Shown here: positions 1,198 through 62,375 of the stretch, one piece after another | Layout of the letters: each line of letters begins with the position of its first letter | Position numbering within the stretch: the first letter of the stretch is position 1 | Source: Owenia fusiformis | Lineage: Eukaryota; Annelida; Polychaeta; Sabellida; Oweniidae | Reading direction: 5' to 3' | DNA: 64,000 nucleotides | Assembly (NCBI GenBank): GCA_903813345.2 | Contig: CAIIXF020000008.1 | Location: forward strand, 22,490,822-22,554,821 | The notes under the pieces: model-generated | Seen by the model: only the letters and a program-made list of their open reading frames with translations | The model's database searches: none | Told to the model about the DNA's origin: nothing | Program-made: the position numbers and the translations under genes

Positions 1198-4100
1198 TGC
1201 AATATTTCCAAGATTTTGCCTGTTGTGCAGCAGTCCCTGGGAATGGTGTGAACAAGGAGTATGCTCTTCATCTTCTCCATATGTACAAGGGAGATGTCAA
1301 GGTATGAGATATGCGCAACTGTAGTTAGGGAGGGTGTCCTAATGACGACAGTTGTGATAATATAACCCTGTTTGAAATACTTCCAACAAAAGTTGCTTTT
1401 CACCCAACAAAACTCCCATACGCCTATGAAATTAATTTCATTTTATTTACAACTGTTGACAATTAGGTTTAATAAATCATGAGCTCATTTAGACATTGTA
1501 AAACATATTACACCAGGGATAAATTCATAAAGTATTGGGTGACATAAAAAGTAAACTGAAAAACATCAGTTTAACACTTAAGATTTTCAAACAGTGGGAA
1601 TGAATAGAGGGGTCACTAGTCTTGGGTTCTAAACAATATATTTCTGGCTGTGATGTCAGCAAAATTTACTAAATTGGCAATGTTTTGTAGTAAATTAAAA
1701 AGTCAATACACTGTATTCTGAATTTTTTGGTAAAAATTCAAATTAGTCTTGAGATATAAAGGGAAATAGAATTGAATTAATGTATAGTTGATTGCATCTG
1801 AATTACATACAGAATGACATCTACTGTAATTGAGTCATTGCTTACTAAAGTGCATGAAGCATTAAATCTGTAAAAGTACATTGAGTAACAACAACAATGA
1901 CCGCAAACAAGTGGAATTCAATGATGCATATAGCCGCAGTATCTTAAATAAATCTCCCATAAATCTTCTCTTAAGTCTTTATAACTACAATTTACTCCAA
2001 TTCTGACCTTGAAATCTGAAAGTTAATCCATACAAAAGGTCATACAATAGGCAAACTAAAATTTATCGTTATATTAAAATAGAAATGTTATCTCAACAAA
2101 ATGAAGCTCAGAATTTTATTTTGGTCTTAAATTATGCCATTTGTAAAGTATTAATACTTATTGACTTAAAGTCCATTTCACTGCTTCAGTTCGTCAGTAG
2201 AACGGCAAAAATAAGAAATTGGGAGAACATTGTGCAATAATATATGGGAAAGTATATTCATAATGTACATGAATGACATTTGTATATCTTGGATTGCTTC
2301 TAGTTTGGCTTATAAAGTGTGTGGCCTCTTATATTTGGATGTTTCTCTGCCATGTTATTTTCAATAAGATTAACATGGCTGAAATTCTTCAAATTACAAG
2401 ACGGCACAGGCTTATTGCACAAAAAACTAAAAAATCTGAAATATACAAATGTCATTCATGTACATTATGAATATACTTTTCCATATATTATTGCACAATG
2501 GTCTCCCAATTTCTTATTTTTGCCGTTCTACTGACGAACTGAATCAGTGAAATGGACTCTAATTAATCACTTGAGATTTAAAAAAACCAACCAATGCAAT
2601 GTAATAAAATTAGTTTAGTTAATAACACAACATGATTATTTGGATGGCATTTTATCATTCTTGATTGTTCAGTTGTTGTTTTTACGCCTACTATATCTAA
2701 ATGCATTCATCAGCCTCAATATTTTCTATATGAAACCATAGTTAATCATCATCAATAACTTTCTCATTTCCGCTGTTCTATGTTTAGATTATGGAGCATT
2801 TATTAGCTCATAACATATAGCCTAGTACTCATACATGCAAGTGTTAAACTAAATGCAGGTATTAGATTTTATTTGAAAGCGTACTACCTGGGAATTACTG
2901 TTGTCAGCAATTTATCGGATTATGAAAATTATCCACAGTGCTTAACACTATCCATTTATATCTAGAGCTTTCAATGAGAACCTCAATAGCATGATTTTGA
3001 TCCTTAATTGATGGAATATTTATTTTTCTAGAATACTTGATCTGCAGGATCTAATAGTGATGTTATTTTACCAGTTAAAAACAATGTATATTTTTAACAT
3101 ATGAGACCACCATTCTAATAATAATGTATTTTAAATAAGGGGCACATATTTGTACATTCACATTAAACTGAAGATATGTAATCTAATTAGAGTTTTATTT
3201 TTAAGGAATTTTTTCTTGATATAGCAAGGACATTAAGATGATTTTTTAGAAATAAATGTGATGTTGAAGTTTCTCTTTTTCACATATAAATGAATATGAT
3301 AACATATGTTAATATGGTAACATAATGAAAATAAAGTCATTGTGGTAGTCCCGCATTATTTCTGCCCCATCGTGATGTCATGTGGGCTTAGATGTTTTTT
3401 ATTATAGATATTAAAGTAACTTTGAACAAACATGTGGGGTTCAATTCTCAAGAGTAATTTGAAACTGATCATGGTGTGAATCGGTATAACGTAGAAACTG
3501 TTGAAGAACTCCTTTGAAGCTCAAAATAGTGTTTCATTTAAGTGTACCACTAGCTGAGATTCATTTTATATGAAGATAATAGATAACAGGAATTAGAAAC
3601 GTGTTCTACGTATGGAGGTGTTCCACTTAAAAGGCTGTAAATGTGTGCCTCAATGTTAACCAATAACATATCTATTTTTCAGGCTGCAATTCTAGCCCTG
3701 ATGAACAACAAGCCTACATTGCCATGCAACCATCCATTGCTTAACTACCGTTACCAGGAGACGGATACCTGGTCGCAGGAGGAGATAGAACAGTACAATC
3801 AAGCACTCACTAAATGTGACAAAGATTTCTTTAGCATATCTAAGGAGGTATGTGATCATTGGAAAATTACATTACACAAGAATGTCTCCCCTAAAAATGA
3901 TGTGCTGTTATTTTGTTATTTGTTATTAGCCTACATGTATGTAATTGTATATTCTTGTTCAGTGAGCTTTATTTTATTTGCTCACAATCCCCCACATTGC
4001 CTGTTGATTGAAGTCTAAGTTTTTTATGTAACTTGTGTGATAGATTGTGTGATTTCACATTACCTATCATATACTTCTGGCTTGCGCAAATAGTTCGCAT

Positions 4101-6174
4101 ACATGTATTTATGGACTGTTATTTATCCCATATAACTATTTATTCATGTACATGTATTTAAATCTATTCCATGTATTCATTCTCCTTTAGATTGGCACAA
4201 AGGATACCAGGGAATGTGTGCAATTCTACTATCTGTGGAAGAAGGTCTGCGCAGATGAACACAAACGTTTACGAATCATCAGACGTAAGCGCGAACAAGA
4301 TGAACTTCACAACATTCGAACACGTGCCCAAAATGCAGAGATGGTACAGGCCCAAGCTCAACAGCAAAACTCTTCATTTGAACTGCCTAATGTAAAGGGA
4401 GAACCTGAAGAAACTGTAAGCATTGGCCTTGTATTACAGTATTATTGTATAGTATTATGGTATCATTGTACAGTATTATTGTGCACTTTTATTCAAATGA
4501 TGTAGATATACTTTTATGGTTAGAACACATATCAATTTCTTTCATTTTGCTTGTTGATTACTCTAAAATGAATATTTTACCAGGTTTTCTGTTCACATGG
4601 ACCTTGCTTGGCTACAATAAGAGGTTAATTTTGTATTTCCTTTAACAATGATAACGTGTTAACCCTGTTTAGAAATACTTCCAACAAACGTTAATTACAT
4701 CAAACTATGGTGCATGTGAACAATGAGGCATCTCTTACTCTAATATGGTTTCAGGTGAAAGATAGCGACAGGTCTAGATCCACTACTCCAACATCAATCC
4801 ATACATGTGATTACCCTGGTTGTTCTTCGGTAAGTACAGTTCAGTTACTAAGTCACCATAAAAAGTGGACAAATGGCAGGTTTTGACATTTTGCATGTTA
4901 ATACTTAGAAGTGGACAAATGGCAGGTTTTGACATTTTGCATGTTAATACTTAAAAGTGGACAAATGGCAGGTTTTGACATTTTGCATGTTAATACTTAA
5001 AAGTGGACAAATGGCAGGTTTTGACATTTTGCATGTTAATACTTAGAAGTGGAAAAATGGCAGGTTTTGACATTTTGCATGTTAATACTTAGAAGTGGAC
5101 AAATGGCAGGTTTTGGCATTTTGCATGTTAATACTTAAAAGTGGACAAATGGCAGGTTTTGACATTTTGCATGTTAATACTTAGCAGTGGACAAATGGAA
5201 GGTTTTGACATTTTGCATGTTAATACTTGTTTCAGATTTACAGTTGTTGAAGATAGCTTTGAAATTATCAGTAGAGAAGAGATAAACAACTTTTGTACCA
5301 TTCTAGTATGTGATGTAATAGTAATAAACACCTTTAGGTGTATTATTTTCATTATAACTACTTGCTAATAAATACAGCTACACTGGGCAATTACATCAAT
5401 TTGCATCTATGTTAATATTTTTAGAGTTTTTACAATTTTGCAATAAAGAAAAATATAGAAATCAAACATGAAAATCAAAGTGATAGTATCCATACTTTAC
5501 ATTTATTTATTGTTTTGTATTTACAGACATTCAACTCAAAGATGGCTTTGAATGGCCACATTCGTATACATGGTGGACAGGGTAGCTCAGTAAAACGGGA
5601 AGTCAGTCCGAGTAGACCTGTTGTTGTTCCAGGCCTTCCGCCAAATCAATCTAGTCTTAATCCTGATGAGCCACTACAGGAGTTCCCTTGTAAGAAATGT
5701 GGCAAGTAAGTAAAATGTTGATATTATGGAGCGTCTCTTGTTGAATTCTGTGTCCGTTTCAGAAAAATAAATTATGGCTTGATTTGAGAAGTTGACCACA
5801 TATGAGACATCCTGCTCAACATCTATTCATTTATTTACCTTGTATTATAAAGTTATAAAATGACTTATTCGAACATGACTGAAACAGGCAGACAAACATT
5901 CCATTTAAATACATAGAAGGTCACTGGAGGAAAACATTGAATAAACATTCAACAGCCTCATCATTTAATTTCATTTGATAGTAATTGTGAACATTTCCAT
6001 TTTTACTTCAGAGTGTTTTACAAAGTGAAAAGTCGTAGCGCTCACATGAAGAGTCACAGAGTGATAGATCCTGATAAGGTACCTAAAGTGAAGACGAAAG
6101 CAGCATACAAACATGTCTACTCCCCCACCCCTTCACACAACTCATCCCTCTCACCAGCATCAGAGTATGGGTGA
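1198..6174 (+). CDS. TRERF1: TRERF1/MIDEAS/ZNF541-like ELM2-SANT zinc-finger corepressor, C-terminal half
   Basis: Six exons: 1198-1301, 3683-3847, 4191-4415, 4755-4829, 5527-5705, 6012-6174. All have GT-AG borders and consistent phases, giving about 302 residues that end in a TGA. The first exon holds the tail of an ELM2 region (ALHLLHMYKGDV). The second and third hold a SANT domain starting at TWSQEEIEQYNQAL and ending near QFYYLWKKV, followed by a basic/acidic coiled segment. The fourth and fifth exons share a C2H2 finger (C-x4-C-x12-H-x3-H), and the last two share another (C-x2-C-x12-H-x3-H, with KSRSAHMKSH). ELM2-SANT followed by C-terminal fingers marks the TRERF1/MIDEAS/ZNF541 family. 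These are scaffold subunits of the MiDAC histone deacetylase complex with HDAC1/2 and DNTTIP1, acting in the nucleus. Which vertebrate paralogue it matches best cannot be decided; one pre-duplication gene is likely. The N-terminal half lies outside the window. Confidence 0.9.
2170..2558. mobile_element. Foldback element in a TRERF1-like intron
   Basis: Two arms of about 119 bp (2170-2288 and 2440-2558) are near-perfect reverse complements. They start AGTCCATTTCACTG and enclose a loop of about 151 bp. The two + strand ORFs here are by-products of the repeat. No clear target duplication; TTAA occurs near both ends but not flush with them. Confidence 0.75.
4863..5228. repeat. 46-bp tandem repeat, 8 copies, intronic
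   Basis: The anchor GTGGAC recurs at 4865, 4911, 4957, 5003, 5049, 5095, 5141 and 5187, an exact 46-bp period. Copies differ by only a few bases, so the array is young. It lies in the intron between the fourth and fifth visible exons. The core TTTTGACATTTTGCATGTTAA resembles part of a dispersed repeat seen at 23840 and 53690. Confidence 0.95.
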
Positions 6175-10600: not shown

Positions 10601-10629
10601 TTAGATAACAGTCTCAGTAACAACAACAC
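10601..10629 (-). other. Possible alternative last exon of DNAL1
   Basis: A pyrimidine-rich acceptor (CTTCACTTTCAG on the minus strand) is followed in the correct phase by 8 codons (VVVTETVI) and TAA. It would join the same donor as the main last exon (14340). The main exon resembles the human DNAL1 tail much better, so this may be chance. A short distance downstream on the minus strand is a TTTATT (AATAAA) signal. Confidence 0.25.
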
Positions 10630-11943: not shown

Positions 11944-14900
11944 TTAGTCTTCATCAGCATCATCTCTGACGACAGGTTCACCTGAAATGACATCATTGAA
12001 ACATCTAGTGTAAAAATCTACTTTAAAACCTCTACTTATACCAACATACAACAGGACAAGACTAGATATTGAATCCACATGCAAGGTTATATCTTCAGAT
12101 TTGTCAGATGTGTTCAGTTTTTCAAACTATGGATGTTTTTTATTCACAGAAAAAGCTGCATTTTAACACACATGTCCTGTATAAACAACACCCAACCTTT
12201 GAAAAGTACACACTGCTCTTGAACACATTTAGAAAAGAATTGAAAAAGCTATTAGCTGTAATTCTCATACTGGTCACTGGTCCCCATCTGGTAACGTGTT
12301 TACAGCAAAATGGTTGAACTTCCGTAAGAGAGAATTTGTATGTTTTTTTTTATTTTCACCAACAAAGAGGTTGATTTGTATTCAAACATTTTACAGGTAT
12401 GTTAATAGTAACACCCGGTTACTGAAAAGCCACTTAGTCACAAGCATATCCAGCAGCTCCACTAATGAGTGAGAATTCCCTTACTTCAGCAACTGAGATG
12501 TTGTCTGGTGAATTTCATAACATCTTGGTTGCGTTGTGTTAACGCTCTAGCTGCTAAAGGGAGGGGTTTCTCACTTGATCATCGTTTCAAAGCGTTTTGG
12601 TGATGCAAAAACAGATCAAAAAACAATTTTGGTTTACTCAAGATGAGATTTACAAATAGTGTCCTTCTAAATAACATTGCAACTGAGCTTCCATGTCATT
12701 TTGATAAGTTGGACCCAAATGTTAAGACATCACACTGAATATTAGAAATGGAAACACACAGGCTTAGAGAGTTAGATGTTTTATGCAGAAAAAAATGAAA
12801 CCGTACTATGTACACTCTCCTCTAAAAGTGTGATAACATCAACTTGCTATTGGGCCCATAGAGAGTTGATGTTGATCATTTTTAAAAAATCATAAAAAAA
12901 CACAAACCAGCCTTACATAATTAGACTATATCGGAAGTTAGGGCTGATAAATTTTATGAGGGGAGTGTACTTGTAATCTAATCTTGTTCAAAGATACTAA
13001 AGATATGTTTTTTCAAATTGTATGTATTGTTAATGTTGTTACAGCCCCCCCCCCCATAATTTTGGCAAATGAAATAGTGTATTAAAGCCTGCTTATGTTT
13101 AATTCTATATTACAACAAGTATAATAGGTAAGAATTTCATGACAAATATGGATTTGTTAAAATCACCAGATATCAAAAGGATTTAATCAGGATAAAAAGG
13201 GGACTTTCAAAACTTTGGAAGGGGTGTAAAAGTGATTTTGTATGTTGTGCAAAATGTGAGTTCCAGTTAGCATGCAATAAAAAACATTTTTTGGAAAATG
13301 GTACATTTAGTGTATGTATAAAATGTTATAAAAAGTTCATGCCTTATATTGCAATTCTATTGATAATTTAATTTAATATCTAAATGTAAATTTACTATTT
13401 TTCTACTCCTTCACTTTTTTGAACTGAGATCTCAACTTGCTCCAATGATTCACTGACTTAACTGTGTGTGGCCTACAGTCTGACTCAGAATCTGATAAGT
13501 CTCCAGCAGAAATGATTTGAAATCCTGGAGATTAGGATTATAAAAAAGACTAAATGTTGGTTGAATTTAATACAAAAATGTTTTGGTCATAGAGATGTGC
13601 AGTACACAGTTTCAATAAAATACACTGAGATAGTAATTTTTTTATGAAAAATTTAGAAATATCACCCAGAATAGTCTTTTGACATTAGATATAGTCTCTG
13701 TTACATAGTAAATAGTAGAATTAGAGACAATAGGGGTGGCAAAATTGGATTTACAAATTTAGATTTGAAATGCAGAAAAGTGTAAATTGTGGCTTTGCTG
13801 CCTCACAATCAGGTGGATCTAGACCACATAATAAGTTAGTTGTTAGGGAAAAACTGATAAATGATGACATACACCCACAATTTAACTGGACATAAATGTT
13901 AAAACATCTATTTGCTTGATTAGGTATGATGATTTTTGAAAAATGTGTGGCACTGAAAGATATTGAATAAGACCCACTTTGTATCTCTGATTCTACCTAA
14001 AAATGCTGAAATAAAGCTAATTTACGTGATTTATTAACATCATTAGATTAATTCACAAGGAGTTAGTTATCTCAAGCACATTAATAAACACAACCAGAGA
14101 CATACAGACAACAAGAAAGCAATACACATAATGTTATTATGGTATGATATGTAACATTTTCTGACTAAAACTTGATTCAAATACATTTCCAATCCATGAT
14201 ACGAATTTGATCAAAAAATAAACATTTTAACCAGTAGAGACATTTTCAATTCTGGAAATTATTTACATTTACATGTAGTTTTAAAAGACAAAATGTACTG
14301 GAATGAAAATAAATATATATACATCAATTTTACACATACCATCCAATTTTTTGAGTTTGGTAAGCTTTTTGATGACGAGATCCCTCCAGTCCCCATCGGC
14401 TGAATGTTTTTCTTCAAGGGGGTTTCCAGTGAACAAGAGTTCCTCTAAACATGGCAGGTCACTCTATATGTGGAAATAAAATATGCACAGTTTTGACTTA
14501 CAAGTTAATAAATGTATTTCAATGCACTATCCCAGGGTGGGATGAAATAAAAATATCAGATGTACAATCACAAAACATTAATATTAATTATAATCGACTA
14601 GTCTTAGACAAATAATTGTTTTATGGATATTAAAATATTGTTTTTTAAATAGAAAGGAAAAAAGAGTTTGAGAGTATTCATACGTTAATATTATGTACAC
14701 TGTATGATTCAATTTCACAAAGTAAAGTGTACAACAGATAAATCAAATACATTTCAATCTTGTATACAAATGCACACACATCCATAATGAGTAACAATTG
14801 CATTTAAATTACATACCAATTTTCCAAATTCACCCCAGTCCTTGACATTGTTATTGGACATGTAAAGTATCTGAAAACAGAAGTAAAGAAGAAACCATTG

Positions 14901-20307: not shown

Positions 20308-20561
20308 TTTGATACTTCCGGTTTGTCGCTATAGTAAAACCTTACGGAGTGAATCAATCCACGACACGCCATGATATATTTTATCTCCATTTCTATATCT
20401 TACGTCTGTAGCAATATAATCAATAGTATATCCTAAAACTAAATAAATGATAATATAAGACCTATAAATATACACGTTGTGTGACTAGAACAATATTATA
20501 TAAACAGATAAATAAGATATATTTAGAGGCTGTAAATAAATTTTGGGTGATATAAATCAAA
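20308..20561. promoter_or_regulatory. Divergent promoter region shared by DNAL1 and MRPS10
   Basis: Only 254 bp separate the two start codons, which face away from each other, so both transcription starts must lie in or very near this stretch. ACTTCCGG at 20314-20321 is a good ETS/GABP-type core, common in promoters of mitochondrial ribosomal genes and in bidirectional promoters. The MRPS10 start sits in AAAATGGCAGCC, which fits the YY1 consensus. No TATA box is placed convincingly for either gene. Confidence 0.7.
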
Positions 20562-23500: not shown

Positions 23501-24655
23501 TAAGAACATATTTTAGAGTCTTCCAAGTAAGTATTAGTGCACTGACTACAAATGATGGAGCATGTCAGTATTAAATTAGTGTCCATTGGTTGGTCAGTGT
23601 GGTTGCAAAGTCTGTTAATTAAATGTGTACATTGAAGACAGTTTATTTGCCAAAAAATCTCATTTTCTCATAAGAGCATTCATTTCTAACGTAAGCTTGA
23701 ATGCCTTGGTGAAGTCATACATATTTTACAATATAATCTTTATGTCACCACCACATGTGGTGACATATTGTTATAGTCTACAACTTTTTTGTGAATGGTG
23801 TTGGATGTTTGGTGTTCGATGTTCAGCATCTGTAACAATTGGCAGGTAGTGACATTTTGCATGGTATTGGTTTGCTGAATTTGGTTTGAAATATGTATGC
23901 ATATATTACATGCACATCAATAATTAAAAATGAAAAATCCTTAGCTGTTTCAGCATGTGTTGTGTACCATAAACAGTTTTATGAAAAACATGCCAAAAAG
24001 ATGAAAAACATGCGATAAGTCTTTTTCAAATAAATCAAATATCAACACCTCTACATTTTCTGTTATCACCTACCAAGTTTTTCTCATATTGCAGTTAAAA
24101 CATATAACAGGCTGCAGTGCTGACACCTATCTGGAGTACATACAAAGGAATCTCCCAGAAGGAATGGCCATGAAGGTGACTCGAGTAAGTTGGAGGATCT
24201 ACAAGTTGTTTAGTTTAAAAAAAGAAAACATAGGATGATTTATCTGAATTAACACAGAATCATCCTTTTGTCCAGCCAGTTATAACCAAACTATCATATT
24301 CAATAGTACATATAGGATGTTATGATGGGTACAGTCACACTCTTCCATGACAGCTCCCTAATGTTTGAGCTCTCGATTTTCAATTTGCAGGATTATTCCC
24401 ACCTTTTTTAAGAAATGACATCTATCAATTCTTTTGATTTCATTCTTTTATCTGTCTAAACTGGTGTTATCATCGATTCAATGTCAGCTGGTTTAGAGTT
24501 TCAGCTGGCAATCCACTTTCTCACCAAATTAATCAAAACCCATCTTTTTATTTCAGAATCGTTTAGAAGCAATACCAGACCATATACAACCTCCTGAAGA
24601 TTTTGCTGGGAAAAGTGATGAACTGCCATACCCTCCTTACAATAAACAAAGCTAG
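20562..24655 (+). CDS. MRPS10: Mitochondrial small-subunit ribosomal protein uS10m, complete
   Basis: Seven exons: 20562-20612, 21462-21544, 21679-21769, 22821-22966, 23418-23526, 24095-24184, 24557-24655. Splice sites and phases all agree and give 222 residues; human is 201. The N-terminus ([16 protein letters not shown]) is basic and hydroxylated, as expected for a mitochondrial presequence. The uS10 fold runs from about [20 protein letters not shown] to [16 protein letters not shown], and includes [19 protein letters not shown] and [17 protein letters not shown]. The protein is part of the head of the mitoribosomal 28S subunit. It is divergently paired with DNAL1 and converges on DCAF4. 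A truncated LINE lies in its third intron. Candidate poly(A) signal AATAAA at 25341-25346. Confidence 0.97.
22315..22700 (+). mobile_element. 3'-end fragment of a LINE in an MRPS10 intron
   Basis: About 90 codons read as the C-terminus of a non-LTR retrotransposon. The zinc-knuckle-like [17 protein letters not shown] (C-x2-C-x7-H-x4-C) is followed by the DIWNNF segment, a TAA stop, and an A-rich tail around 22665-22700. The same C-terminal motif spacing occurs in the larger LINE at 49741-51530. Heavily 5'-truncated, as is usual for this class, and co-oriented with MRPS10. Confidence 0.8.
23735..23960. repeat. Dispersed GTGGTGACAT repeat
   Basis: CCACATGTGGTGACATATTG is followed by a block with CAGCATCTGTAAC and GTGACATTTTGCATG. 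The same block order recurs in pieces at 9815-10060, 36470-36560 and 53680-53720. It probably belongs to an old non-autonomous transposon family that also seeded the tandem arrays at 4863 and 52790. Confidence 0.5.
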
Positions 24656-49740: not shown

Positions 49741-51530
49741 CTTTTATTTTTATTTATTTATTTTTTTTTTTTTTTTTTTTTTATTGAATCAAACATAAAA
49801 TAATACATTAAACAAGGCAATGATAAAATATTAAACCACTTTCACACCACCTCCATTCATTCAGACATTCGCAACAGTCATACCCAGAAGTTCTGGTATA
49901 TACATAAACATGGTATTTTCAAATTGAGTCACGTCCAAGTTGGGATTTACCTCATTAAATTGTTTTGCATATATATAATATTTGATTGCTAGTTGCTAGT
50001 GATAGCCTGTTTAGCAAAGTGTTTTCATTATTTACAGATCTTCCGAACACCATATCATGGGCATTAAAATTAAGATTTACATTGAATAATTTCCCCAAAT
50101 TCTCTTTAATAGCTTTCAAAAAAATCTGAACCCGCCTACATTCCCAAAACTTGTGCTTTAAAGTGTCTCTTAATGGACAGTAACTACATCTAGCATCCTG
50201 TTTAATTCCTATCTGCGTTAAGTAAGCATTTGTGGTACAAATACCATGTAGAATCTTAAATTGAAGTTGTCGAATTTTATTTTGTTTCGTGCAGCTATAA
50301 GCCATTTTAAAATAATCTATTCTTCCTAACTCACGATCATGTTCATTTTTATATAGTGGTTCCAAATATTTGTTTCTATTTAATATTTTTTGAATTGACT
50401 TCACTGTTAAACCATTCAATGACACTGGTTTTTCGCCAAGTGTTAAATGCACAAGATCCGTTTGTAGGCTCGGTTCAAAAACTGAAGTTAAGTCTCGCTT
50501 CAATAAACGTTTCCACTCCTTCGGTACAGCTGATATTATAGCATAATAATCAATAAAATTAATTTGTACGTTGTATTTTGCCTTAAAATCATAATACTGT
50601 AAAAAATGTCCCTGGTCATTTAGGAGGTCATTTACGTAAACGACCCCATTATCCATAAGATGCTTATTTATGACCTCTTTGTTATTAATTAGGACAAATC
50701 TATTATTCCAGAGTATTTCACTTTTAACTTCAGAACTAGTTCTTGGAGCTTGCATATTCCTTATATCAGAGTAAATTTGTAAAATATTTGAGTAAAATTC
50801 TGGCACGTCGTGGGCTATTGTTTTAATATCAAAATTACATTGTATAAAGAACTTCATTCCCCCAAGCGGTTTAAAGTACAATTCTGGGATATATTTCCAA
50901 TGACTTTGTCGAGGTTCGATTAATCTTTTTAGCCATATCAGTTTAAGTGCTTTTTCCATTGAAAACATGTCAATCATTCTTAGACCACCCTCGTCGTAAT
51001 CACCAATTAAAGTTCGTCTCTTAACCTTTTCCGTTTTTCCACCCCATAGGAATGAATAAATTATCTGTTGTGCCTTTGTTAATATATCATTTGGGGTATT
51101 TGTCATTGACATGGAATACACCAGTTTAGAAATACCAAGCGTTTTGATTATCAGAACTCGACCATATAAAGTTAAATTTCTTCTTGACCACATTTTCAAT
51201 ACTTTTTGAAGCGAGTCTAATTTCTTCTCAAAGTTAACAAAATCATTTGATTTCTTATTATATGAGACACAAATTCCCAGAAATTTACTTGGATCTTTAA
51301 CCCATTTTAAACCGTATAACTTATCCTCAGTTTTAGATCTTTCTGAACCAATATACATACATTCTGTCTTTTCTTTGTTAATACATAATCCAGAAATATC
51401 TTTAAATTCATCAAAAATGTTTAAAGCCAGTTTAAGAGATTCTTTGCTATCTACTGTCAGTGTTGTATCGTCAGCAAATAACTCGATCTTTTGCTCATTA
51501 TTTCCCAAGCGGATCCCTTTAATATGGAAA
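49741..51530 (-). mobile_element. 5'-truncated LINE, L1/Tx1-like, reverse transcriptase C-terminal part
   Basis: An open frame at 49955-51508 encodes about 517 residues. It begins just before the catalytic FADDTT motif of reverse transcriptase and runs through thumb and connection regions (KFLGICVSYN, YSFLWGG, GGLRMIDM). It ends with a zinc-knuckle CSYCPLRDTLKHKFWEC (C-x2-C-x7-H-x4-C). The rest of ORF2 is missing on the 5' side: similarity starts at about 51530 (HIKGIRLGNNE), so most of the element was never copied. Near 49975 a TA-rich run appears to shift the frame: the next frame continues plausibly (YAKQFNEVNPNLD) for about 40 codons. A T-run at 49761-49782 is the poly(A) tail. It lies about 200 bp upstream of KLHDC3 coding exon 1, in antisense. 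Confidence 0.9.
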
Positions 51531-51743
51531 AGACCCAGGCTTACATTTTGGAAATATTTCTTGCACTAATTTCTATATGCAAATGATTTTGTTTGGTATT
51601 TTTAGCACCATTTTTATTATATTTTTATGTAGCAATGAGCATTATGTTCTACATGCAGAAATTAGTAAAATTATTTTGAGTCGACCCCTAAGATGATAAT
51701 ACTTAGGTCTTTTCACTACAGTTTCAGATGTTTACCTGACACA

Positions 51744-54700
51744 ATGCATTGGACTGTGGCTTTGGAGGGTGGGCCTAGGCGTGTCAATCATGCTGCGGTT
51801 GCTATAGAAACACATGTATATACATTTGGTGGTTACTGCACTGGGGAAGACTATGAAACTGCCAGACCAATGGATGTACATATGCTTAATACAGGTAAGT
51901 TGTTACCTTTTGGTCCAAAGACTTATATCACCCTCTGTGTAATATTGTAATAACCATCTGAATAAATTAATCAATTATACAGGCCTGTCAACTGTCCCGC
52001 AATTTGCGTATTTGTCACGCATTTGCTGAAGAATTTGAAGTCACGCCAGTTATTTTTGCGTGACAGAAAATGTCACGCAAATACGCATTTTACCTGGTAA
52101 TTGTGAAGCAAAAATATTTCTGTAGAAAATTTTCTAAAAAAGATCGTCTACACAGGAAAAATACGAACGACGGGAAAAAAACATACGCATTTCGTTCGGA
52201 CTTTTCACGCGAATTACGGATATGTCACGCATTCCGTTCGAAATTTTTCGTACCTACCCCCCCCCCCCCCCCCCCCCCGTTGATGGATGATTAAAACGCG
52301 AGCGTAGCGAGCGCGAAAAATTTGAGGTGTTCAAAATTTGACAAGATGTAATAAAATTTAAACCAAGGTGTTCAAAATTTGGATCAAGGTGTTCAGATTT
52401 GGACCAAGGTGTCCACATTTTGAGGGGAGGTGTTCAACATTTCCAAGTCACTCATGTTAGGTGTTCCCAAGTTGACAGGCCTGATTATATAGCTTGGCTG
52501 CTGGTAAGGTCTTCATAAGCATGAATCCCAAAGTATGTGTAACTATAAAGACATTTCATGGGAATGTCAAATACTTGTGAAGGTGCATTATTCATGTGAA
52601 TGTGAAGTACTTATGAAGGTGTCGTTCCACCCTGTACTCTGAAACCTAATATTCTGATTTTCAAAACCCAAAACTCTGAAACCTATTTCTCCTAAATTCA
52701 ATACAACAAAAAATTAAGCCATATGATACCTTTGTCTCTTTATACCAGAATTGAATCAAACTTTCAGGAAGTGAGAAATCAAATGTAACGACTTCAATTT
52801 TTTTCAAAATCATCTACAAGTTTTCAGAAGTTCAAATCTGACTCTAGAATTAGACCTTTCAAGGTCAAAAAAGGTTAGAAAAGGTCTTTTTTCAACTTGC
52901 TTCAATTTTCTTTTCAAAATCCTCTTCAAGTTTTCAAAATTTCAAATCTGAGTTTAGAATTCAGATTTGACCTTCGATGACTCTTTTTTCAACTTGCTTC
53001 AAATTGACCAATTTTTTTCAAAATCATCTTCAAGTTATCAAAAGTCAAAATCTGAATATAGATTTGACCTTAAATAGCATTTTCAAGGTCAAAAAAGATT
53101 TGACCTTTAATGACCTTCTCAAGGTCTTAAAGGTCTTTTTTCAACTTGCTTCAAATTGACCAATTTTTTTTCAAAATCATCTTCAAGTTCTCAAAAGTTA
53201 AAATCTGAATATAGATTTGACATTCAATGACATTCTCAAGGTCAAAAAAGATTTGACCTTCAATTACCTTCTCAAGGTCAAAAAGGAATTTTTACATTTT
53301 GCTTCAAATTGACCAATTTTTTTTTCAAAATCGTCTACAAGTTATCAGAAGTTCAAATCTGACTTTAGATTTGAGAGTTGACCTTCAATGACCTTCTCAA
53401 GGTCAAAAAAGGTCAAAAGGTCTTTTTTCAACTTGCTTCAAATTGACCAATTTTTGTTTTCAAAATCATCTTCAGGTTCTAGGAAGTGCACACATGGCTA
53501 TAGATTTTGCCTTCAATGACATTTGATCTTCAATGACATTCGCAAGGTCAAAAAAGATTTGGCCGTCTCAAGGTCAAAAAGGTATTTTTTCAACTTGCTT
53601 CAAATTGACCAATTTATTTTTTCAAAATCATCAACAAGTTCACAGAAAAATTCAAATCTGACTTAAGATTGAACTCATAATATTGTGGTGACATTTTGTC
53701 ATGTTAATGCTTTGTTACAGCCAAAATAAGTTGATTTACCCCAAAAAGTTTCAATGGCTGATGATGATTAAGAAAAAGCTTGATGGTTTCATGGATTGGT
53801 TTGCCATGAATAAAGCTAAGGCAAATAACATTCTCCACAATGAGTACATTATACATATGCATGACCTCAGAACTGCTTATTGACCCTATGCACGAGTGAC
53901 GTCACAAATACACATTTTTCCAGCTCAGTTCAGCTGGCCGTCTAGAAAAGCCCGGGAAAATCAAAACATCAAATATGGCGGAAAGCAAAACAACAACTGT
54001 TTCTTCTACGAGGAAATCGTCTCAAATATCTAAGTTAGATCATGAAAGTCTGAATCGATATATAACAAAAATTGAACCTTTGGACGGGGTTGACCCGTAT
54101 AGCATTGATCGCAATAAATTAATTGGATTAATGTCACTTTCAAAAAAGAATCTCCCGGATTTTAGTTTTGGAGATATTTACCAGTACCTGATCAATACGC
54201 CTAGCAAGTTGTTCAACGGACAGACCTTGAAGGCCTACAAATCGCTTGAGGGATATCAGTACCTTGTTGCTGGTTATGTAAGAAATGTACTTACATATAG
54301 ATGTACATCGGGATCTCTTGTTATTCTAGCTAAGGTAAGGTTTGTACGCCAAGATGTTATCTCACTTTTCTAAGTTTACTTCGGTCCAAAGCCTCCTCTA
54401 CGATTTTTGTTGAATGATTTTAATTGTTGATAAATGTAACCAACGTCCTCTCTCCACTCCTCACGGTCACTACCGTTTGAAAATCGAGTCAGTGTGGGCT
54501 GCACTGCATATGTCAGTTTGTCTTTCAACAGGTCAAAGTTGCTACATAGTAAACAACTAAGTCGGACAGTGGTCGGTGTATACTGACCTGATTTATTGTA
54601 CACATGTTTTTGTACATCTAGTTGTAAACAAATAACCAACTTTCGATTGCGATCCAGTGTATCAATTGCCTTACACGTTAGCTAGATTTAAATTAAATTG

Positions 54701-57700
54701 TATCCATATTTAGGCCTACGAGGTCATGTCGTGAAGAATTGGTATCATCGAATAATAATTATATGATTACAGGTATACCATTCTCAGGCACTAAATAAAA
54801 CACCACTGGAACCGTGGATAGCTGTGCATCCTAGTGGGGAGGTGATATGTGCTCATTGTACCTGCATGGCAGGTCTAGGGGAGGCATGCTCACACATTGC
54901 AGCAACTCTATTTGCGTTGGAGACAAGAGTCATAAATGTAGCTCGTCAGTCCTGTACCTCAGTTCCATGTGAGTGGAGCAGCGTATCTGACAAACCTGTT
55001 TCATACAGACCAGGGAGTGACATAGAGTTTTCAAGCCCATCCCACAAAAGAACAGCAATGTGTGCTCCATCAACAGCACCAACACGCAAGACTCGCAAAA
55101 GTGATAAAATACCAGGACCCACAGAAGAAGAGACTAATAAATTCTACAGTGATTTGAACAGTAGTGGAACTAAGTGTGCCATACTCAGCCTGATACCAGA
55201 ATACTCCAAGTCATTTGTCCCACGTCCTGTATTGGTAAACTTGCCTAAAACGATACCTGACTTATTATTTGACCCGGATTTGCAGCCATTGACATTTCCC
55301 GACCTGTTGGTTAAGTGTGAGGATCTATTGCAGAAAATAACTTATGATCCCATCCAGGTATGTAATGTTTAATTTCAGATTCAAACGATCAGATTTTTTC
55401 TCACAAAACTACAAGTATATATGTCTGACCATACAAATAATGTACCGGTATTCGATTTCGTTCACACCTAATCCGTCTGCGGCGACCTTATCAATAATGT
55501 ATCTAATCCTCCTAAATATATAAATGAAATGAATGTATGGGTATTGATATTTCATGCAGACATACAAAGACTGTGCACTTTTGATTATTTAAATTTAGGC
55601 TGCAGCTTTAGAAGAGACCACAAGATGCCAATCAAACAGTACATGGTACAGTCATCGAGCGGGAAGGGTGACAGCATCAATATTTAAACGGGCTGCCCGT
55701 ACCAACCCAGACTGCCCTGCAATGTCATTAATCAAGCAGGTGTGCTACCCTGAGAAGATGAAGTTTAATTCTAAGGCCACGAGGTGAGACCATTTGAAAT
55801 ATTACATGAATGATAATAGAATTAACGTGTTTCTAAGGATTGATGAATTGTATCCCATATATTCCACAAGTTCTTGTTTAATACACAATGTATTAGAGAC
55901 ATTTAGCAGCTCCATGTTTTAACAGACAAATACATGTAATATTTAACCTTAAATCATGCACCTGTGTAGAGAATCATGTCTAAATCAATAAAATCAAGTT
56001 AGCTAAAATATCAGATAGGATATATGTATTGATTCATGCAGATAAAACTTCGCCAATATTTGTCATTTGAGAATCGTAAGAAAAATTCAATGAAACATCA
56101 CCAAATTAAGTTAAATTAAAATGCTATCTTCATCTCTTCCAGGTGGGGGTGTGAGCACGAGGAAACAGCAAGGCAACAGTTCATCAATCATGCTAAGCCC
56201 TTACACAAGGACTTCAGCGTGTTACAATCTGGATTTGTGATCAATCATGAGTTCCCATATATGGGTGCCTCACCTGACGGTGTCATTAGCTGCAATTGCT
56301 GTGGGAAGGGAGTGTTGGAGATCAAATGTCCATATTGTTCTCGCCATGGTACTTTGTCAGATGAAGCTGACAGGGACTCTAGCTGCTTAGTTCGAAATGC
56401 AAATGGTGAGATTATTGGATTAAAAACAGATCACCAGTACTACTTCCAGTTGCAACTCCAGATATTTTCATGTAAAGCTAGCTATGGAGACATAGTTGTG
56501 TGGACTGAAAAAGAATTTTATTATCAGAGATTGCTTCCAGACCTTAAATTTTATGAGGAAAACACTATCAAAGTCAAGCATGTGTACCTCACTTCGATAA
56601 TGCCTGAATTATGCTGCAAATGGTTCACCAGAGACACCACTCAACAGTATTTATCAAATGATCAAAGCTTAACCCTTGATGCCATTTGCAGGTGCAGGCA
56701 AGAAACTGGAAATGGCGAGATAATTATTTGCAAGAATAAAAATTGTGCGATATCAAAATTTCACTTAAAGTGCATGAAACTCACAACATCAAGGAAGTCG
56801 TGGGTTTGTCCAGAATGTAGAAAAGCAAAGAAAATCAACATATAATTTGAACAGAAAAGTGATTGCTAAATTGGAATTTTATTGTATTGGTTACAAGCGA
56901 ATGTCAACTAATACTCATGTAAATACAGGGTGGGTCAAAAAGTCCACATTTTATATTACAGTAGCATCAAACTGCATACTTTTTTTGTAATTGTAGATAT
57001 GAATATGAGAATTGATTTTCTGAATGTATTACTCCATGTTACAAAATTACAGTTCGTGCTGAAGAAAATACATCCTTAAGTACCACGTAAACACATAAAA
57101 TGTTAATAAGTGTTTTATCATTAGAGGTATGTGAAAAATGTCAGCAGTAAAGTCTGAAAGTGGTGATGCAAATTAGGCATTGTAGATGCCCTCCACTAAA
57201 TTGTAAATACATGTACCTCCAGCCATATTTAGCACAAATCAAACCTTTGACAAGTTACTGTTACTGTATATATTGTACATATTAGAGTCTATGAACATTA
57301 TATTCCCGTCTTGTAATAATTTATTGGAACCATGAAACGTTTGAAAAAATGATGAGGTTTTCATTGATTGATAAGAGGAATAATTAAGACCAGTGTACAT
57401 GGTGTAGAAACTGTCAATTTAAGGATTCTAAAATAAATCTCTCGACTTCATAGATCCAATGTTAGGAAGGACGTGAATTTATTTTCCAGGTTTGAATTAG
57501 TAAATATTCTGTATGAAGTGACACTGTGTAACCTCATCAGTTTATACTAGACACTGATTTTATACTAGACTGCAATGTATATTACGAATTGTGTAATTCA
57601 ATCCAAAATATAACATATTTTATTAAAATGGTACAACTGATTCACATGTATTTGACAGGGCACTGGAAACAAAAACCACCTTGTCTAGAGTAGTAAGCCC

Positions 57701-60700
57701 AGTTGTTTCATCTGTTTGAAGGAGTGATATTGGTATTTTTGCACTAAGCATTGTGTACTTGCTCCTGACTAAACCAATAACTCTCTCAACGTGTATTCGA
57801 ACAGAGGCTAATCCTCTGGTAGATTCCACCTCGTACAAACTTAATTGCGATTTTCCTCTTGTGAAAGCTGGGATTTCTACTTTTGCACCATGAAGTCCAA
57901 CAAGATCTTGTATGTCAAAACCACGGTCTGCAAGTATTAAGTCTCCTGGCTGAAGCTTCTCTAGAAGACCACAATTATCAGTTAAATGTTTGTCACTAAC
58001 ACGTCCTCCCCAACCTTTGGAAACAAAAGTCACAACGCCTTGGGGTGCAATTGCGATAAGATATTTGATTGTATTGTTCGATTTATAGTGACTATATCAC
58101 TGGGGGGTATCGTGATGCAACAACACCGTGTTGTTGCATCAAGATGGCCAGACTTCCGGTGATAGATTTTCGTACGATATTTTGTTTTCCCAATTTAAAC
58201 CCATTTCTAGGACGAGTTGCTCAATAATCATACACGTGCAGTTAGCTCATGATCTATATTTTAAAAAACTCTCATTAGTATGCATGTAGCATTATCAAGA
58301 AGCGAGAAATTCGCGGTTTTAATTCCTCACTATTGATGCAACAACACCACTCTGTTTATTATCGATGATGCAACAACACCAATGTGCTGATGCAAAAACG
58401 CCAATATAATTGTATCATTGAATATCAAGAGAAACTGTTTTATGTTCTGTTTATAGGTGTTGGTCGGGACACGAATAAAACGCGTTCATGCGTGGTTCAT
58501 GAATGAAACGTATTTTGTTTGGTTCCTTAATATATTTGTCTTTGTCAAAGTTAAAAGGATATACAAGGTAAACTAAATACATAGGCTAAGTATTGAATCC
58601 CCGGGAGCCAACCTCATTGATATTGTATCTGAAAAATAAAGATTATTCATTTTCTAAATTAAATCCCCTTGATTTACCGTATAATATGGAACTTGTTTAC
58701 AAAGAACTAATATAACTAGACTTTGGAAATTGAACAAGTTCAATTTCAGACTCCAGATCTAGACTTTTTTAAGCCGAGTCATCCAGAAAAAGATGGATGG
58801 ATGAAATAGGAAGGAGGGATAGGACAGAATAGAATGGAACGATAGGAGAGAATAGAGAAGAAAGATAGGATAGAATAGCAGTGAAGGATAAGATAGGAAG
58901 GATAGGAAGGAAAGGATATGAAGGATAGATAGGAAGGAACGGATAGGGATAAAAGGGATGGGATAGGAAGGATAGGATAGAATAAGAAGGAACGATAGGA
59001 TAGAATAGTAGGATAGGATAGGAAGGATGGATGGATTTTTCAACATTTTCTTCGCTACTCTTGACTTTCTATCAGGATACCATCAGATCGATTTTTATTG
59101 AAATTTCAAAACGCCATAACTTCCGAACCGGAAGTCGGATCGAAATTTGGTTTGCAGATTCTGATTCCTGAGAAAATTATATTCTTCATTCATAACTCAA
59201 ACCTTAAATTTGGAGATTTTTTTTATTTTGACCTACTTTTTGGACACCATATCTCAAAAGTGGGTTAAAATACTTTCTGACGGCAAAAGGCTAACACTAT
59301 TAGTACACTCTTGGCTACATGTATACACAATATCGAAGAATATAATTGAAGTGTAGTGTCAGAATCACAAAAATAAGGAAAACTTTGAATTTGACCTAGA
59401 TTTTGACCTAGACATTTTTGTGTCCAAATTTTGAAGCTAGATTGCTTTTGAGGTACCCTTCATTTAAAGGCTTTCATTAAATTAAGCTGTACTCGGTCGT
59501 ATATATGTCGTATTTTACACTTCAAAAAAAATTTCCCATTGACTTAACATGGGGCACCAAATTTAGCGATTTTGAGTTTTCAAAACGCCATAACTTCCGA
59601 TGAGTGTTGGTTTAATGATAATTGCAGTTATACAATGCTATTATATAGAGGTTTTATTCCGGGAGACATTATGATATTTCCCGAGGGCCCAGGGGGAATC
59701 TGGGATTACTGTACCCCTATCAATTTACCTTTTCGGGACCTAAATCCCATTACCTACCTTTATACTCCATCGGGGAGACCGAATCCAAAGAGAACAAATG
59801 CTTCTACATGTGCGCCCTGCAAGATTTCCAATAGCTCGTCGTGTTTACCGAGAACGAAAGATGTTTGTCCACCATTTCAGAATGATACTAACTGGAGTCA
59901 GGGTCATCAAGCTATGGAACAGGGGTTTATGAAAATAGATTGGGTTACTATAGCTTGCAATGTTAAAGGCGATTGAACTATGTTATAAAACAACTTCCAG
60001 TACATTATGATATTTTAAAGTATAAATTTTTGAAAATACATATATAGAATCTTCGCCCACAGGACGTGTATTTTGAATGCCTGAGAAGAACGCAAATGGG
60101 TACTGGCCCGGTGTTGCAATAGTAGCATTTGAAAATCTGTTCCTCCTGAGATTTATGGTCTTCTGAAATAATACTATTAATTGGTGTTGTTGCATCATTG
60201 CTCAAATCTAGAGGAGTGTTGTTGCATCTTCGGTTTGGTGTTGTTGCATCAATAGTGAGGAACTAAAACCGTGAACTTCTTGCTTCTTGTTGATGCTACA
60301 TGTATACTAATGACAGTTTCTTTAAATATAGACCGTGGGCTAACTTCACGTGTATGGTTATTGAGAAACTCGTCCTAGAAATGGGTTAAATTGGGGAAAC
60401 AACATATCGTACGAAAATCTATCACCGGAAGTCTGGCCATCTTGATGCAACAACACGGTGTTGTTGCATCACGATACTCCCCAGTGTATATGTTGTTGCT
60501 CGAGCATCAAGGTCCTTTGGCTTTTCAATGAAAATTTCAAAACAGTCTATGATACCAACACACTTACTAAATGCCCCTAAAAACGACCGTGGTAGTGTAG
60601 CCCGAAGATTCAATAAGTCATTCGGCCATTTAACAAGTACAGGTACAAGTCTTGCGTTGCAAACATCGATTACGTGAGAGAATATTCGTGAAACTGTAGA

Positions 60701-62375
60701 TTGATCGATGTTAAAGCGGTATGCTAAATCGTGAGTGCCAAGATTTAGACGAAGTCTCATCAAGGTTAATATGAATTGGGAAGATTTACTCATGGTTGCT
60801 CTGGGGACCAGGTGTCCAATTATCATGTTAAGATGAGCCAAAAAGACTGCAAATGTTGGCAACCCGGTATAATATTTCAGTTTGTTTTCGTTATTTTTTA
60901 AACGTTTCCTCGTTAATTTCTAGGTTTCGAATCTCTTGCTGTAAGTGGTTGTTCTCGGATTTGAGTGTCTCAAGTTCATTTCTTAATGTAGTACAGAGTC
61001 TGCTCTTTTCCTTTAATTCCGTGTTTTCACGTTTTAGGTCCATCACTTCTCGCATAATATTATCCAACTCGGAACAAGAAAGGTCGGTCTGTGTACCAAC
61101 ACTCGTACCAGTGAACGTGTCGAATGTTTCACACTTAACAATATTCGTGACTCTGCATCTCTTTGAGGCATGACGTTCATATGCATGTAAGCTCTTTCGC
61201 TTCCTCTCGATCTCCTCGCTAGATTTGTACGAAAAGACAGAGGGAATGAAGTCGGGATGATCTTCAATATTTGACTTTTGTCCTGAAAATATGTGTTTGA
61301 TAAATAAGTGGATTTGTATATACCCATGTCATGTACGCCATGGTCTCAATCATTTTTTTCTGTGTGAAATATCAATGTTAGAAAGGGATCTCAATTTTAA
61401 AAATTAAAACGGGGTGGAAACACTATGATTGATATTCGAGTGAAGCGCACATCAATATCCAAACAAATATTACAAAGGTTTATTTTAAGTTCTTAGTTTT
61501 CTCCATAAAAAGTACATGCAGAAATACCCGTGAAAATCAACGTGGCTCACCGACAGTCACATAATATTACTTACATAGGCCTACTTCCCTCGTGTTTAAT
61601 GATAGCGGTATTAACACAATGCGTGGTATTTAAATGTGCATTATTTACTGATAACTTTATAATTAATAAAATTTTATTTTACTTATTATTTAGAAAACCA
61701 GGTCTGTTTCGATTACTACACTGTACCTGACAAGAAATGAGCGCTGCAAAGTCGATCGTGTTCTTTTGGTTCCCAGTTTTGCCTTTTTACAGCATTTATC
61801 CATAGCTTTCTTTTTACAGGTGACTTCTTGTCACTCGGAAAGCGATAAAACGTAATGCCGACTTGTTCTCTATTCGAACATTCAACAGCAACGCAGCATT
61901 TAGGCATACTCTTTTAATTTTTTCTCATCACTTCGTCGCCATTTTGAGCACTGGTTGCTTATGACGTTTTCTAGACGGCCAGCAATATTTTCTGGCCGGA
62001 CAAAGGCATGACGTCACACTGATGCATAGGGTCAATAGCAATAAAGGTGAGGTCACAAAATGAAATTAATGTAAAGATTTTGGTTCTTTTTGTGTTTCTT
62101 CCCTTTTTAACCTGATGACAAAAAAGGAATTTAAGTCTACTGGTTTAATACTCCTGCTCTCATGTCACTAAAAATGATGAAGACATTTCTATTGCTTTAA
62201 GTGACCTACAAATGGATGGCTATACCAGTTCCAAAGTGCAGTGACCCTCAATACCGTATTGCTCCCTATATGAGGTATGGACACACTGCAGTGGCGCACA
62301 ACAGGCTGGCATACTTATGGGGTGGTCGCAATGATACATCTGGAGCATGCAATATCTTGTATGTATTTGACACAG
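51744..62375 (+). CDS. KLHDC3: Kelch-domain protein 3, first two coding exons
   Basis: Exons: 51744-51894 (within an exon whose acceptor ends at 51727) and 62202-62375. They give 108 residues; the remaining ~270 lie beyond the right edge. The start [18 protein letters not shown] and the next segments [32 protein letters not shown] and [13 protein letters not shown] match the N-terminal kelch blades of KLHDC3 (Peas) closely. The split codon after NT closes as V. Family role: substrate receptor of a CUL2 ubiquitin ligase that reads C-terminal glycine degrons. The 10.3-kb intron between the two exons holds a CAGGCCTG element, a satellite and the ISL2EU transposon, all of which must be spliced out. 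Untranslated exon(s) upstream are expected but not identified. Confidence 0.93.
51980..52483. mobile_element. Non-autonomous DNA element, CAGGCCTGTCAAC ends, longer copy
   Basis: It starts CAGGCCTGTCAACTGTCCCG and ends CCCAAGTTGACAGGCCTG, flanked by ATTATA on both sides (51974-51979, 52484-52489). It has internal GTCACGC repeats, a C-run near 52256-52278 and a small AAGGTGTTCAAAATTTGG array. Same family as 17146-17419. The ends are hAT-like but the duplication is 6 bp. Confidence 0.85.
52790..53690. repeat. ~150-bp satellite-like array, five to six copies
   Basis: CAACTTGCTTCAAATTGACC recurs at intervals of roughly 137-161 bp (about 52990, 53142, 53431, 53592, with variants at 52897 and 53294). 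The intervening blocks carry AAATCATCTTCAAGTT and GACCTTCAATGACCTTCTCA. Single fragments occur at 9960-10060 and, inverted, at 30985-31140. Ends against GTGGTGACATTTTGTCATG. Confidence 0.85.
53975..56845 (+). CDS. Transposon accessory protein with SWIM, YqaJ-nuclease and PHD domains
   Basis: Four exons: 53975-54334, 54773-55357, 55599-55783, 56143-56845, with GT-AG sites and closing phases, give 610 residues without a break. Order of domains: an N-terminal region of unknown fold; a SWIM zinc finger ([14 protein letters not shown], residues ~148-161, C-x-C-x7-C-x-H); a YqaJ/lambda-exonuclease-like nuclease with GRVTAS near 345, GASPDG at 418-423, LEIKCPY at 435-441 and YYFQLQLQI; and a C-terminal PHD finger (C559, C561, C573, C578, H584, C587, C599, C602). 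The acid-EIK pair is the metal-binding core of this nuclease family. It starts 94 bp inside the left terminus. It is expected to help excision, integration or end processing, with PHD perhaps guiding the complex to chromatin; that role is inference. The frame looks intact although the partner transposase is broken. Confidence 0.88.
58785..59036. repeat. GGATA/GGAAGGATA microsatellite
   Basis: Imperfect AGGATAGGAAGGATA units run across about 250 bp inside the nested element. The minus-strand frame over it is low-complexity Ser/Leu/Pro and not a gene. Confidence 0.9.
59634..59976 (+). other. Unassigned cysteine-rich open segment in the nested element
   Basis: A frame from ATG 59634 (open from about 59572, but the upstream part is repeat-derived) encodes [20 protein letters not shown] and continues through [12 protein letters not shown] and [14 protein letters not shown] to a TGA at 59974-59976, about 113 codons. 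It has seven or so cysteines and sequons NAS, NSS, NDT and NWS, suggesting origin in a secreted or membrane protein. A good acceptor (GATAATTGCAG) lies just upstream at about 59618-59628, so it may be a captured host exon. I do not recognise the protein. Confidence 0.4.

What the first reader, a model, noticed from the sequence alone, without database searches (positions are those of the whole stretch)
1198..62375. Five linked genes look like the unduplicated ancestor of the human 6p21/14q24 paralogon
The order is TRERF1/MIDEAS-type, DNAL1, MRPS10, DCAF4, KLHDC3. From memory of the human map, TRERF1, MRPS10 and KLHDC3 are close together on 6p21, with TRERF1 and MRPS10 adjacent. MIDEAS, DNAL1 and DCAF4 lie together on 14q24. 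One invertebrate locus carrying both sets, with a single TRERF1/MIDEAS gene, is what whole-genome duplication followed by reciprocal loss predicts. It is also strong microsynteny across functionally unrelated genes.
Basis: partly seen in the sequence, partly recalled or inferred. Interest (0 to 1): 0.7.

Follow-up and report, generated by a model that had tools for sequence, protein, structure and literature searches.

The report
Ancient gene neighbourhood later split in vertebrates
An invertebrate chromosome still carries side by side a set of genes that in humans is divided between chromosomes 6 and 14, as expected if vertebrate ancestors doubled the region and each copy then lost different genes; a clear new example of a well-known pattern.

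Summary
The five genes are real: a TRERF1/MIDEAS-type ELM2-SANT zinc-finger gene (+), DNAL1 (-), MRPS10 (+), DCAF4 (-) and KLHDC3 (+). The first and last run beyond the window. Each was found at one locus in the 498 Mb genome. The host has, by eye, one Hox cluster with a Lox5 KLTGP motif, so it is a lophotrochozoan-type animal. The window lies on contig C8 (39.3 Mb, 7.9% of the assembly). Of 21 further human 6p21.1/14q23-24 genes sought, 20 were located and 16 lie on C8; of 15 control genes, 1 does. So C8 is a single counterpart of both human regions, as whole-genome duplication with reciprocal loss predicts. The strict local claim fits three genes: TRERF1/MIDEAS, then DNAL1 and MRPS10, oriented as in human MIDEAS-DNAL1 and TRERF1-MRPS10 (human map recalled). 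DCAF4 and KLHDC3 fit only at megabase scale. 'Ancestor' should read 'cousin keeping the ancestral arrangement', and the paralogon is probably wider than two regions. No second animal genome and no gene tree was tested. Real, but a new case of a known pattern.

The parts
1198..6174 (+). 3' part of a TRERF1/MIDEAS-type gene: ELM2 end (1198-1301), SANT (3683-3847, 4191-4415), zinc-finger exons (5527-5705, 6012-6174 with stop). The gene starts upstream of the window.
   Evidence: MIDEAS 6z2j E 1.9e-23; recalled human TRERF1 C-terminal finger matches 6010-6069, N-terminal finger matches 6.5 kb upstream of the window
14338..20307 (-). DNAL1 (axonemal dynein light chain 1); conserved coding blocks 20189 to 14338; a first exon ending right after its ATG at 20307-20305 is proposed by eye
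   Evidence: seven blocks; 8j07 E 2.4e-83; sequence of the 5' end
20562..20612 (+). candidate first exon of MRPS10 (targeting-like peptide, then a GT donor), about 255 bases from the proposed DNAL1 start; not proven
   Evidence: reading by eye
22821..24655 (+). MRPS10 (mitochondrial ribosomal protein uS10m), conserved exons
   Evidence: 3j9m E 7.9e-43; PF00338 E 3.2e-19
25960..29654 (-). DCAF4 (WD-repeat protein); a possible further 5' exon at 29986-30189
   Evidence: PF23761 E 3.2e-53
51744..62375 (+). KLHDC3: first two conserved coding exons (about 51744-51902 and 62201-62375), separated by a 10-kb intron; the gene continues beyond the window to about 79.3 kb
49955..51565 (-). reverse-transcriptase remnant just before KLHDC3
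   Evidence: RVT_1 E 9.4e-8, zf-RVT E 8.2e-5 (the latter below its curated cut-off)
56120..60919 (.). mobile-element pieces in the first KLHDC3 intron: YqaJ domain (56120-56845 +), DDE_Tnp_4 (57623-58096 -), HTH_Tnp_4 (60422-60919 -)

Best explanation
The window is a piece of one ancestral animal chromosome that this lophotrochozoan-type host still keeps as a single chromosome (C8). In the vertebrate line that chromosome was multiplied by the early whole-genome duplications. In the copy that became human 6p21.1, DNAL1 and DCAF4 were lost and TRERF1, MRPS10 and KLHDC3 kept; in the copy that became 14q24, MRPS10 and KLHDC3 were lost and MIDEAS, DNAL1 and DCAF4 kept. The TRERF1/MIDEAS gene, kept in both, is the duplicate pair. 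Shown here: the five genes, their single loci, a single Hox cluster by eye, and the chromosome-wide correspondence. Inferred: the duplication and loss history. Recalled: the human positions and strands.
For: Gene identities. Single locus for each. Hox genes in one cluster on C1 with Lox5 KLTGP. 14q23-24 genes: 10 sought, 10 located, 9 on C8 (ERH, SNW1, FCF1, PSEN1, MAX, SIX1, ATP6V1D, NUMB and, more weakly at 41% identity, GSTZ1); EIF2S1 on C1. 6p21.1 genes: 11 sought, 10 located, 7 on C8 (GNMT, PPP2R5D, SRF, POLR1C, KLC4, HSP90AB1, TMEM63B); CDC5L and RUNX2 on C11, NFYA on C6, TFEB not found. Controls: 15 sought, 15 located, 1 on C8 (TBP). Fisher 16/20 against 1/15: p = 2e-5; sets only, 13/16 against 1/15: p = 4e-5, and against the 8 controls alone: p = 0.002. 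If gene order on C8 were random, the chance of both DNAL1 and MRPS10 within two places of the anchor gene is about 1e-6 to 5e-6 for 3500-1500 genes (gene numbers assumed, pair singled out after the fact). Gene order inside ancient linkage groups is 'largely scrambled' (PMC7269912 section 6), so retained local order is notable.
Against: EIF2S1 (14q23) and NFYA, CDC5L and RUNX2 (6p21.1 flanks) are not on C8; NFYA also has a weaker second match on C5. TBP, a control recalled on 6q27, is on C8, only 0.4 Mb from the window. PSEN1 and NUMB lie between DCAF4 and DNAL1 in human (recalled) but are 15 and 2.6 Mb from the window on C8, so little order beyond the core survives. The vertebrate ancestor is reported to have inherited 70 microsynteny blocks, fewer than the 110-124 found in shuffled genomes (PMC8851819, passages), so one local block shared with human is weak evidence alone. 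No tree and no second invertebrate was available. Some test genes (PPP2R5, KLC, HSP90, TMEM63) belong to families with human members in several of these regions (recalled), so giving each one band is a choice. KLC4, HSP90AB1, RUNX2 and TMEM63 were queried after searches had been seen.
Confidence: 0.85

Rival explanations
1. Only chromosome-level conservation is real; the local closeness of these five genes arose in this lineage by reshuffling inside an old chromosome.
For: Gene order in such chromosomes is largely scrambled; vertebrates kept fewer old microsyntenies than shuffled genomes show; PSEN1, NUMB and SRF are megabases away on C8; DCAF4 and KLHDC3 are not immediate neighbours of the others in human (recalled).
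Against: The anchor gene next to both DNAL1 and MRPS10, with human-like relative orientations (human side recalled), has a chance of order 1e-6 under random order. It remains open for DCAF4 and KLHDC3.
Confidence: 0.12
2. The linkage is kept by function: shared regulation, e.g. a two-way promoter for DNAL1 and MRPS10, or enhancers of the TRERF1-type gene lying in its neighbours.
For: DNAL1 and MRPS10 are head to head, with proposed starts about 255 bases apart (by eye). Gene-dense old microsyntenies show higher co-expression (PMC8851819, passages).
Against: By the recalled human map, vertebrates separated DNAL1 from MRPS10 and both persist, so the link is dispensable at least there. No expression or chromatin data were available. 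This can be true together with the best explanation.
Confidence: 0.25
3. TRERF1 and MIDEAS arose by a local or segmental duplication in vertebrates, not by whole-genome duplication.
For: The gene tree and its date were not tested here.
Against: Other families found once or twice on C8 have human members on both 6p21.1 and 14q (TMEM63, KLC, PPP2R5, HSP90, human positions recalled); a third paralogue ZNF541 exists.
Confidence: 0.05

Closest known systems
Chordate/bilaterian ancestral linkage groups (Simakov et al. 2020, PMC7269912; section 6 read, passages elsewhere)
   Same: Whole chromosomes of slow-evolving invertebrates match sets of vertebrate paralogous segments; the groups are stated to be intact in scallop
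   Different: That section is about chromosome-level linkage with scrambled order; here local order of three genes may also survive. The letter of the linkage group was not established here.
Paralogons used to date vertebrate duplications (hagfish genome paper, PMC10972751; passages read)
   Same: Paralogous segments descend from one linkage group, and invertebrate linked genes serve as outgroup
   Different: No statement on this five-gene set in the 12 passages seen
Bilaterian microsynteny blocks (PMC8851819; passages read)
   Same: Blocks of neighbouring genes kept since the bilaterian ancestor, with high retention in lophotrochozoans
   Different: Whether this block is in their list is unknown; supplements were not read. 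Few such blocks are reported to survive in vertebrates.
MIDEAS/TRERF1/ZNF541 family; C. elegans SAEG-1 (PMC3088716, PMC4344507, PMC7319964, PMC7192582; passages read)
   Same: ELM2-SANT co-repressor; nematode SAEG-1, with a C2H2 finger, is described as orthologous to TRERF1 and ZNF541
   Different: The window gene is another single invertebrate copy; its function is untested. PMC4344507 states that the three human proteins share little outside ELM2-SANT and an 80-residue stretch before it.

Membership tests
Unduplicated counterpart of the human 6p21.1/14q24 paralogon | host genome did not undergo the vertebrate duplications | tested here: met
   Hox-type matches in one cluster on C1 (11 of 27 matches; the other 16 look like other homeobox genes), Lox5 KLTGP motif (by eye); five genes at one locus each
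Unduplicated counterpart of the human 6p21.1/14q24 paralogon | other genes of both human segments lie on the same chromosome more than expected | tested here: met
   16 of 20 located (21 sought) on C8 against 1 of 15 controls, p = 2e-5; sets fixed beforehand 13 of 16, p = 4e-5
Unduplicated counterpart of the human 6p21.1/14q24 paralogon | the single TRERF1/MIDEAS gene branches outside the vertebrate TRERF1, MIDEAS and ZNF541 genes | not tested
   no vertebrate set beyond MIDEAS structures and recalled TRERF1 pieces was at hand
Unduplicated counterpart of the human 6p21.1/14q24 paralogon | same linkage in other slow-evolving invertebrates | not testable with these tools
   by their descriptions the searchable collections hold no other animal genomes
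Unduplicated counterpart of the human 6p21.1/14q24 paralogon | human genes at the stated positions | not testable with these tools
   positions are recalled; no human map was consulted
Bilaterian microsynteny block (local order) | TRERF1/MIDEAS, DNAL1 and MRPS10 adjacent with conserved relative orientation | tested here: inconclusive
   order and strands in the window are shown; the human side is recalled
MIDEAS/TRERF1/ZNF541 family | ELM2-SANT region closest to this family | tested here: met
   E 1.9e-23 against MIDEAS, next other protein RERE at 6.7e-7
MIDEAS/TRERF1/ZNF541 family | TRERF1-type C2H2 fingers before and after ELM2-SANT | tested here: met

The most novel reading that the evidence does not exclude
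TRERF1/MIDEAS, DNAL1 and MRPS10 form a three-gene block older than the protostome-deuterostome split, with DNAL1 and MRPS10 sharing a two-way promoter, and the vertebrate duplications resolved it so that each human copy of the anchor gene kept a different one of the two partners in the original orientation: a compact test case for how duplication dissolves a promoter-sharing pair.
Probability: 0.45. Interest if true: 0.45.

Novelty: new member of a known kind. Interest (0 to 1): 0.33.

Why it matters
It gives a small, legible example in which unrelated neighbours on one invertebrate chromosome predict which human chromosomes are duplicates of each other, and it suggests that TRERF1 and MIDEAS, and probably ZNF541, come by genome duplication from one zinc-finger ELM2-SANT gene. 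It changes no general view; chromosome-scale conservation and the use of paralogons are established.

Tried and rejected
Pfam ELM2 alone gave no match in the window, probably because introns split the domain; its only match was elsewhere, on C1. Pfam on single exons or reading frames named neither the TRERF1-type gene nor DCAF4; with joined exons it named DCAF4, while the TRERF1-type peptide got only a Myb/SANT match just under its cut-off. The PDB search with the DCAF4 peptide listed 9 sequences, all WD-repeat or dynein-tail entries and none named DCAF4. A proposed second MRPS10 exon at 21462-21544 was dropped: its reading phase does not fit the next exon (by eye); without it the candidate first exon leaves the protein some 45 residues shorter than recalled human MRPS10, so an exon is probably missing. 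In the 200 kb upstream the exon finder showed, by eye, NPHP1 at about -195 kb (Pfam saw only weak SH3 matches) and a zinc-finger array; in the 40 kb downstream the rest of KLHDC3 and one repetitive exon; no further 6p21/14q24 gene was recognised, so the block does not visibly extend. Paper searches: TRERF1 with MRPS10, ELMSAN1 with TRERF1 and paralog, microsynteny with MRPS10 (none), paralogon with both bands (the one paper's passages, say nothing of this paralogon), any two of DNAL1, MRPS10, DCAF4 and KLHDC3, paralogon with VEGFA and PGF (none) and the wider 1q/11q/14q/19q paralogon (10 of 50 papers listed). No report of this block was seen in these listings; that covers only the open-licence library, and no supplements. 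BANF1 and FAU (11q13) and TFEB (6p21.1) gave no reported match; only 37 of 283 candidates were scored because repeat proteins crowded the list, and searches scored 25 of 115 and 33 of 49, so missing matches and extra copies are weakly tested.
Full report
Host and place. The window is G000:C8:22490822-22554821 of a 498,259,871-base assembly in 525 contigs; C8 is 39,264,044 bases, i.e. 7.9% of the assembly. A Lox5-type homeodomain query gave 27 matches at E 1e-10 or better, 11 of them in one stretch of contig C1, 17.97-18.47 Mb. Of the 12 loci returned, 11 could be read (L035 was not). The best match continues as WKKDNNIEKLTGPP, the Lox5 signature of lophotrochozoans (recalled as such); beyond it lie, by eye, Scr-, Dfd-, Hox3- and labial-like genes in that order. 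Two matches on C2 look by eye like the ParaHox genes Xlox and Gsx. So the host appears to be a lophotrochozoan-type invertebrate with one Hox cluster. Size and contig lengths recall an annelid such as Owenia, but this was not tested.

Genes. The TRERF1-type gene has the TRERF1-like finger [23 protein letters not shown] upstream of the window and the finger RVFYKVKSRSAHMKSHR after the SANT domain. C. elegans SAEG-1 is likewise a C2H2 protein with ELM2 and SANT, described as orthologous to TRERF1 and ZNF541 (PMC3088716, passages), so the finger-bearing form is probably ancestral, and MIDEAS, which I recall as lacking such fingers, derived. Against leaning on the fingers, PMC4344507 states that the three human proteins show very little homology outside ELM2-SANT and about 80 residues before it (passages). 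The gap between DCAF4 and KLHDC3 and the first KLHDC3 intron hold mobile-element remains; no further gene was recognised.

Copy number. A joined query of all five proteins against the whole genome gave 21 matches at E 0.01 or better: 17 in the window, covering all five genes, and 4 elsewhere, all in the DNAL1 part with 33-40% identity, as expected of other leucine-rich-repeat proteins (53 of 74 candidates scored).

Chromosome test. I chose genes whose human sequences I could recall. The sets were written before any result; the first control set was written after but before one search was answered; KLC4, HSP90AB1, RUNX2, TMEM63 by its Pfam family and the second control set were picked later. 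14q23-24: 10 sought, 10 located, 9 on C8; EIF2S1 is on C1; GSTZ1 is the weakest (41% identity, E 2e-8). 6p21.1: 11 sought (CDC5L, NFYA, SRF, TFEB, PPP2R5D, GNMT, POLR1C; KLC4, HSP90AB1, RUNX2; TMEM63), 10 located, 7 on C8; PPP2R5 has two loci there. The three that fail, NFYA (C6, with a weaker match on C5), CDC5L and RUNX2 (C11), flank the others in human (recalled), so the C8 part of 6p21.1 is about 42.2-44.3 Mb; this narrowing was made after seeing the results. Controls: PCNA, CSNK2B, RPS3, ATP5F1B, RPS6, RPS18, RPL10A and EEF2, RPL3, RPL5, CTNNB1, GAPDH, RPLP0, RPSA are elsewhere; TBP is on C8, 0.4 Mb from the window: 1 of 15. All located genes, 16 of 20 against 1 of 15: Fisher p = 2.0e-5; counting the unlocated TFEB as a miss, 16 of 21: p = 3.9e-5; only, 13 of 16: p = 3.9e-5, or p = 0.0023 against the 8 controls alone; without GSTZ1, 12 of 15: p = 1.2e-4. 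For 6p21.1 alone, 7 of 10: p = 0.0017; 4 of 6: p = 0.011. Gene assignment in the long queries is by position in the string; for and most the limits were computed, for read off.

Local order. In the window the anchor gene is followed by DNAL1 on the opposite strand, tail to tail, and then MRPS10 on its own strand. By recall, human MIDEAS and DNAL1 are tail to tail on 14q24 (apart from PNMA1) and TRERF1 and MRPS10 are neighbours on one strand on 6p21.1. Each human copy thus keeps the anchor with one partner in the original relation. DNAL1 and MRPS10 are head to head; a first exon of DNAL1 ending right after its ATG (ATG then GTGAGA) and a candidate targeting-peptide exon of MRPS10 put the starts about 255 bases apart (by eye).

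What this is. Chromosome-scale linkage kept across bilaterians, with scrambled order inside, is established (PMC7269912, section 6), and paralogons are standard evidence for the vertebrate duplications (PMC10972751, passages). Old microsyntenies are kept well in lophotrochozoans but poorly in vertebrates, whose ancestor inherited 70 blocks against 110-124 in shuffled genomes (PMC8851819, passages); that makes a surviving block unusual, and also makes chance a real rival for any single one. The window is a clean new instance at chromosome scale, with good local order for three genes. The likely wider paralogon (ZNF541 on 19q13, plus 1q41-42 and 11q13) rests on recall apart from MEN1 on C8 (BANF1 and FAU of the same band gave no reported match).

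Limits. No second animal genome, no human map and no gene tree were available; human bands and strands are recalled. The six-frame search is blind to introns and scores only the best candidates, so a missing match is weak evidence.

Noticed in passing
upstream of the window, about -155 to -91 kb in window coordinates (within L002-L021): A long tandem array of C2H2 zinc-finger exons, several ending in the same DIFNYFKL or similar tail, with BTB-like exons nearby (by eye): looks like a lineage-specific expansion.
   Followed up: no
G000 C11:28.25 Mb and C11:28.54 Mb: CDC5L and RUNX lie 0.3 Mb apart, as CDC5L and RUNX2 are near each other on human 6p21.1 (recalled): perhaps a second old block of different chromosome ancestry.
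   Followed up: no
G000 C1, C2, C3, C4, C5, C7, C8, C10, C12: Many long open frames (up to 1803 aa) of repeats 27-42% identical to kinesin light chain repeats: a large repeat-protein family.
   Followed up: no
window 26600-27094 and 4863-5228: Near-perfect minisatellites between coding exons: 9.5 copies of 52 bases (98%) in DCAF4 and 8 copies of 46 bases (96%) in the TRERF1-type gene.
   Followed up: no
window 20308-20561: Short stretch between the proposed DNAL1 start and the candidate MRPS10 start, a possible two-way promoter.
   Followed up: partly
about -195.8 to -191.3 kb upstream of the window: Exons that read like NPHP1 (acidic stretch, SH3, then TSATDVLQAMGAVPPGFRQTTL) by eye; Pfam gives only weak SH3 matches.
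   Followed up: partly
window coordinates 90971-91533, downstream (L022-L025): An exon with a repeated IPSGILQQGR-like unit; its only Pfam match is below the family's cut-off and looks like a chance match to the repeat.
   Followed up: no
G000 C10:7.21 Mb and 7.24 Mb: Two neighbouring EEF2-like genes about 26 kb apart.
   Followed up: no
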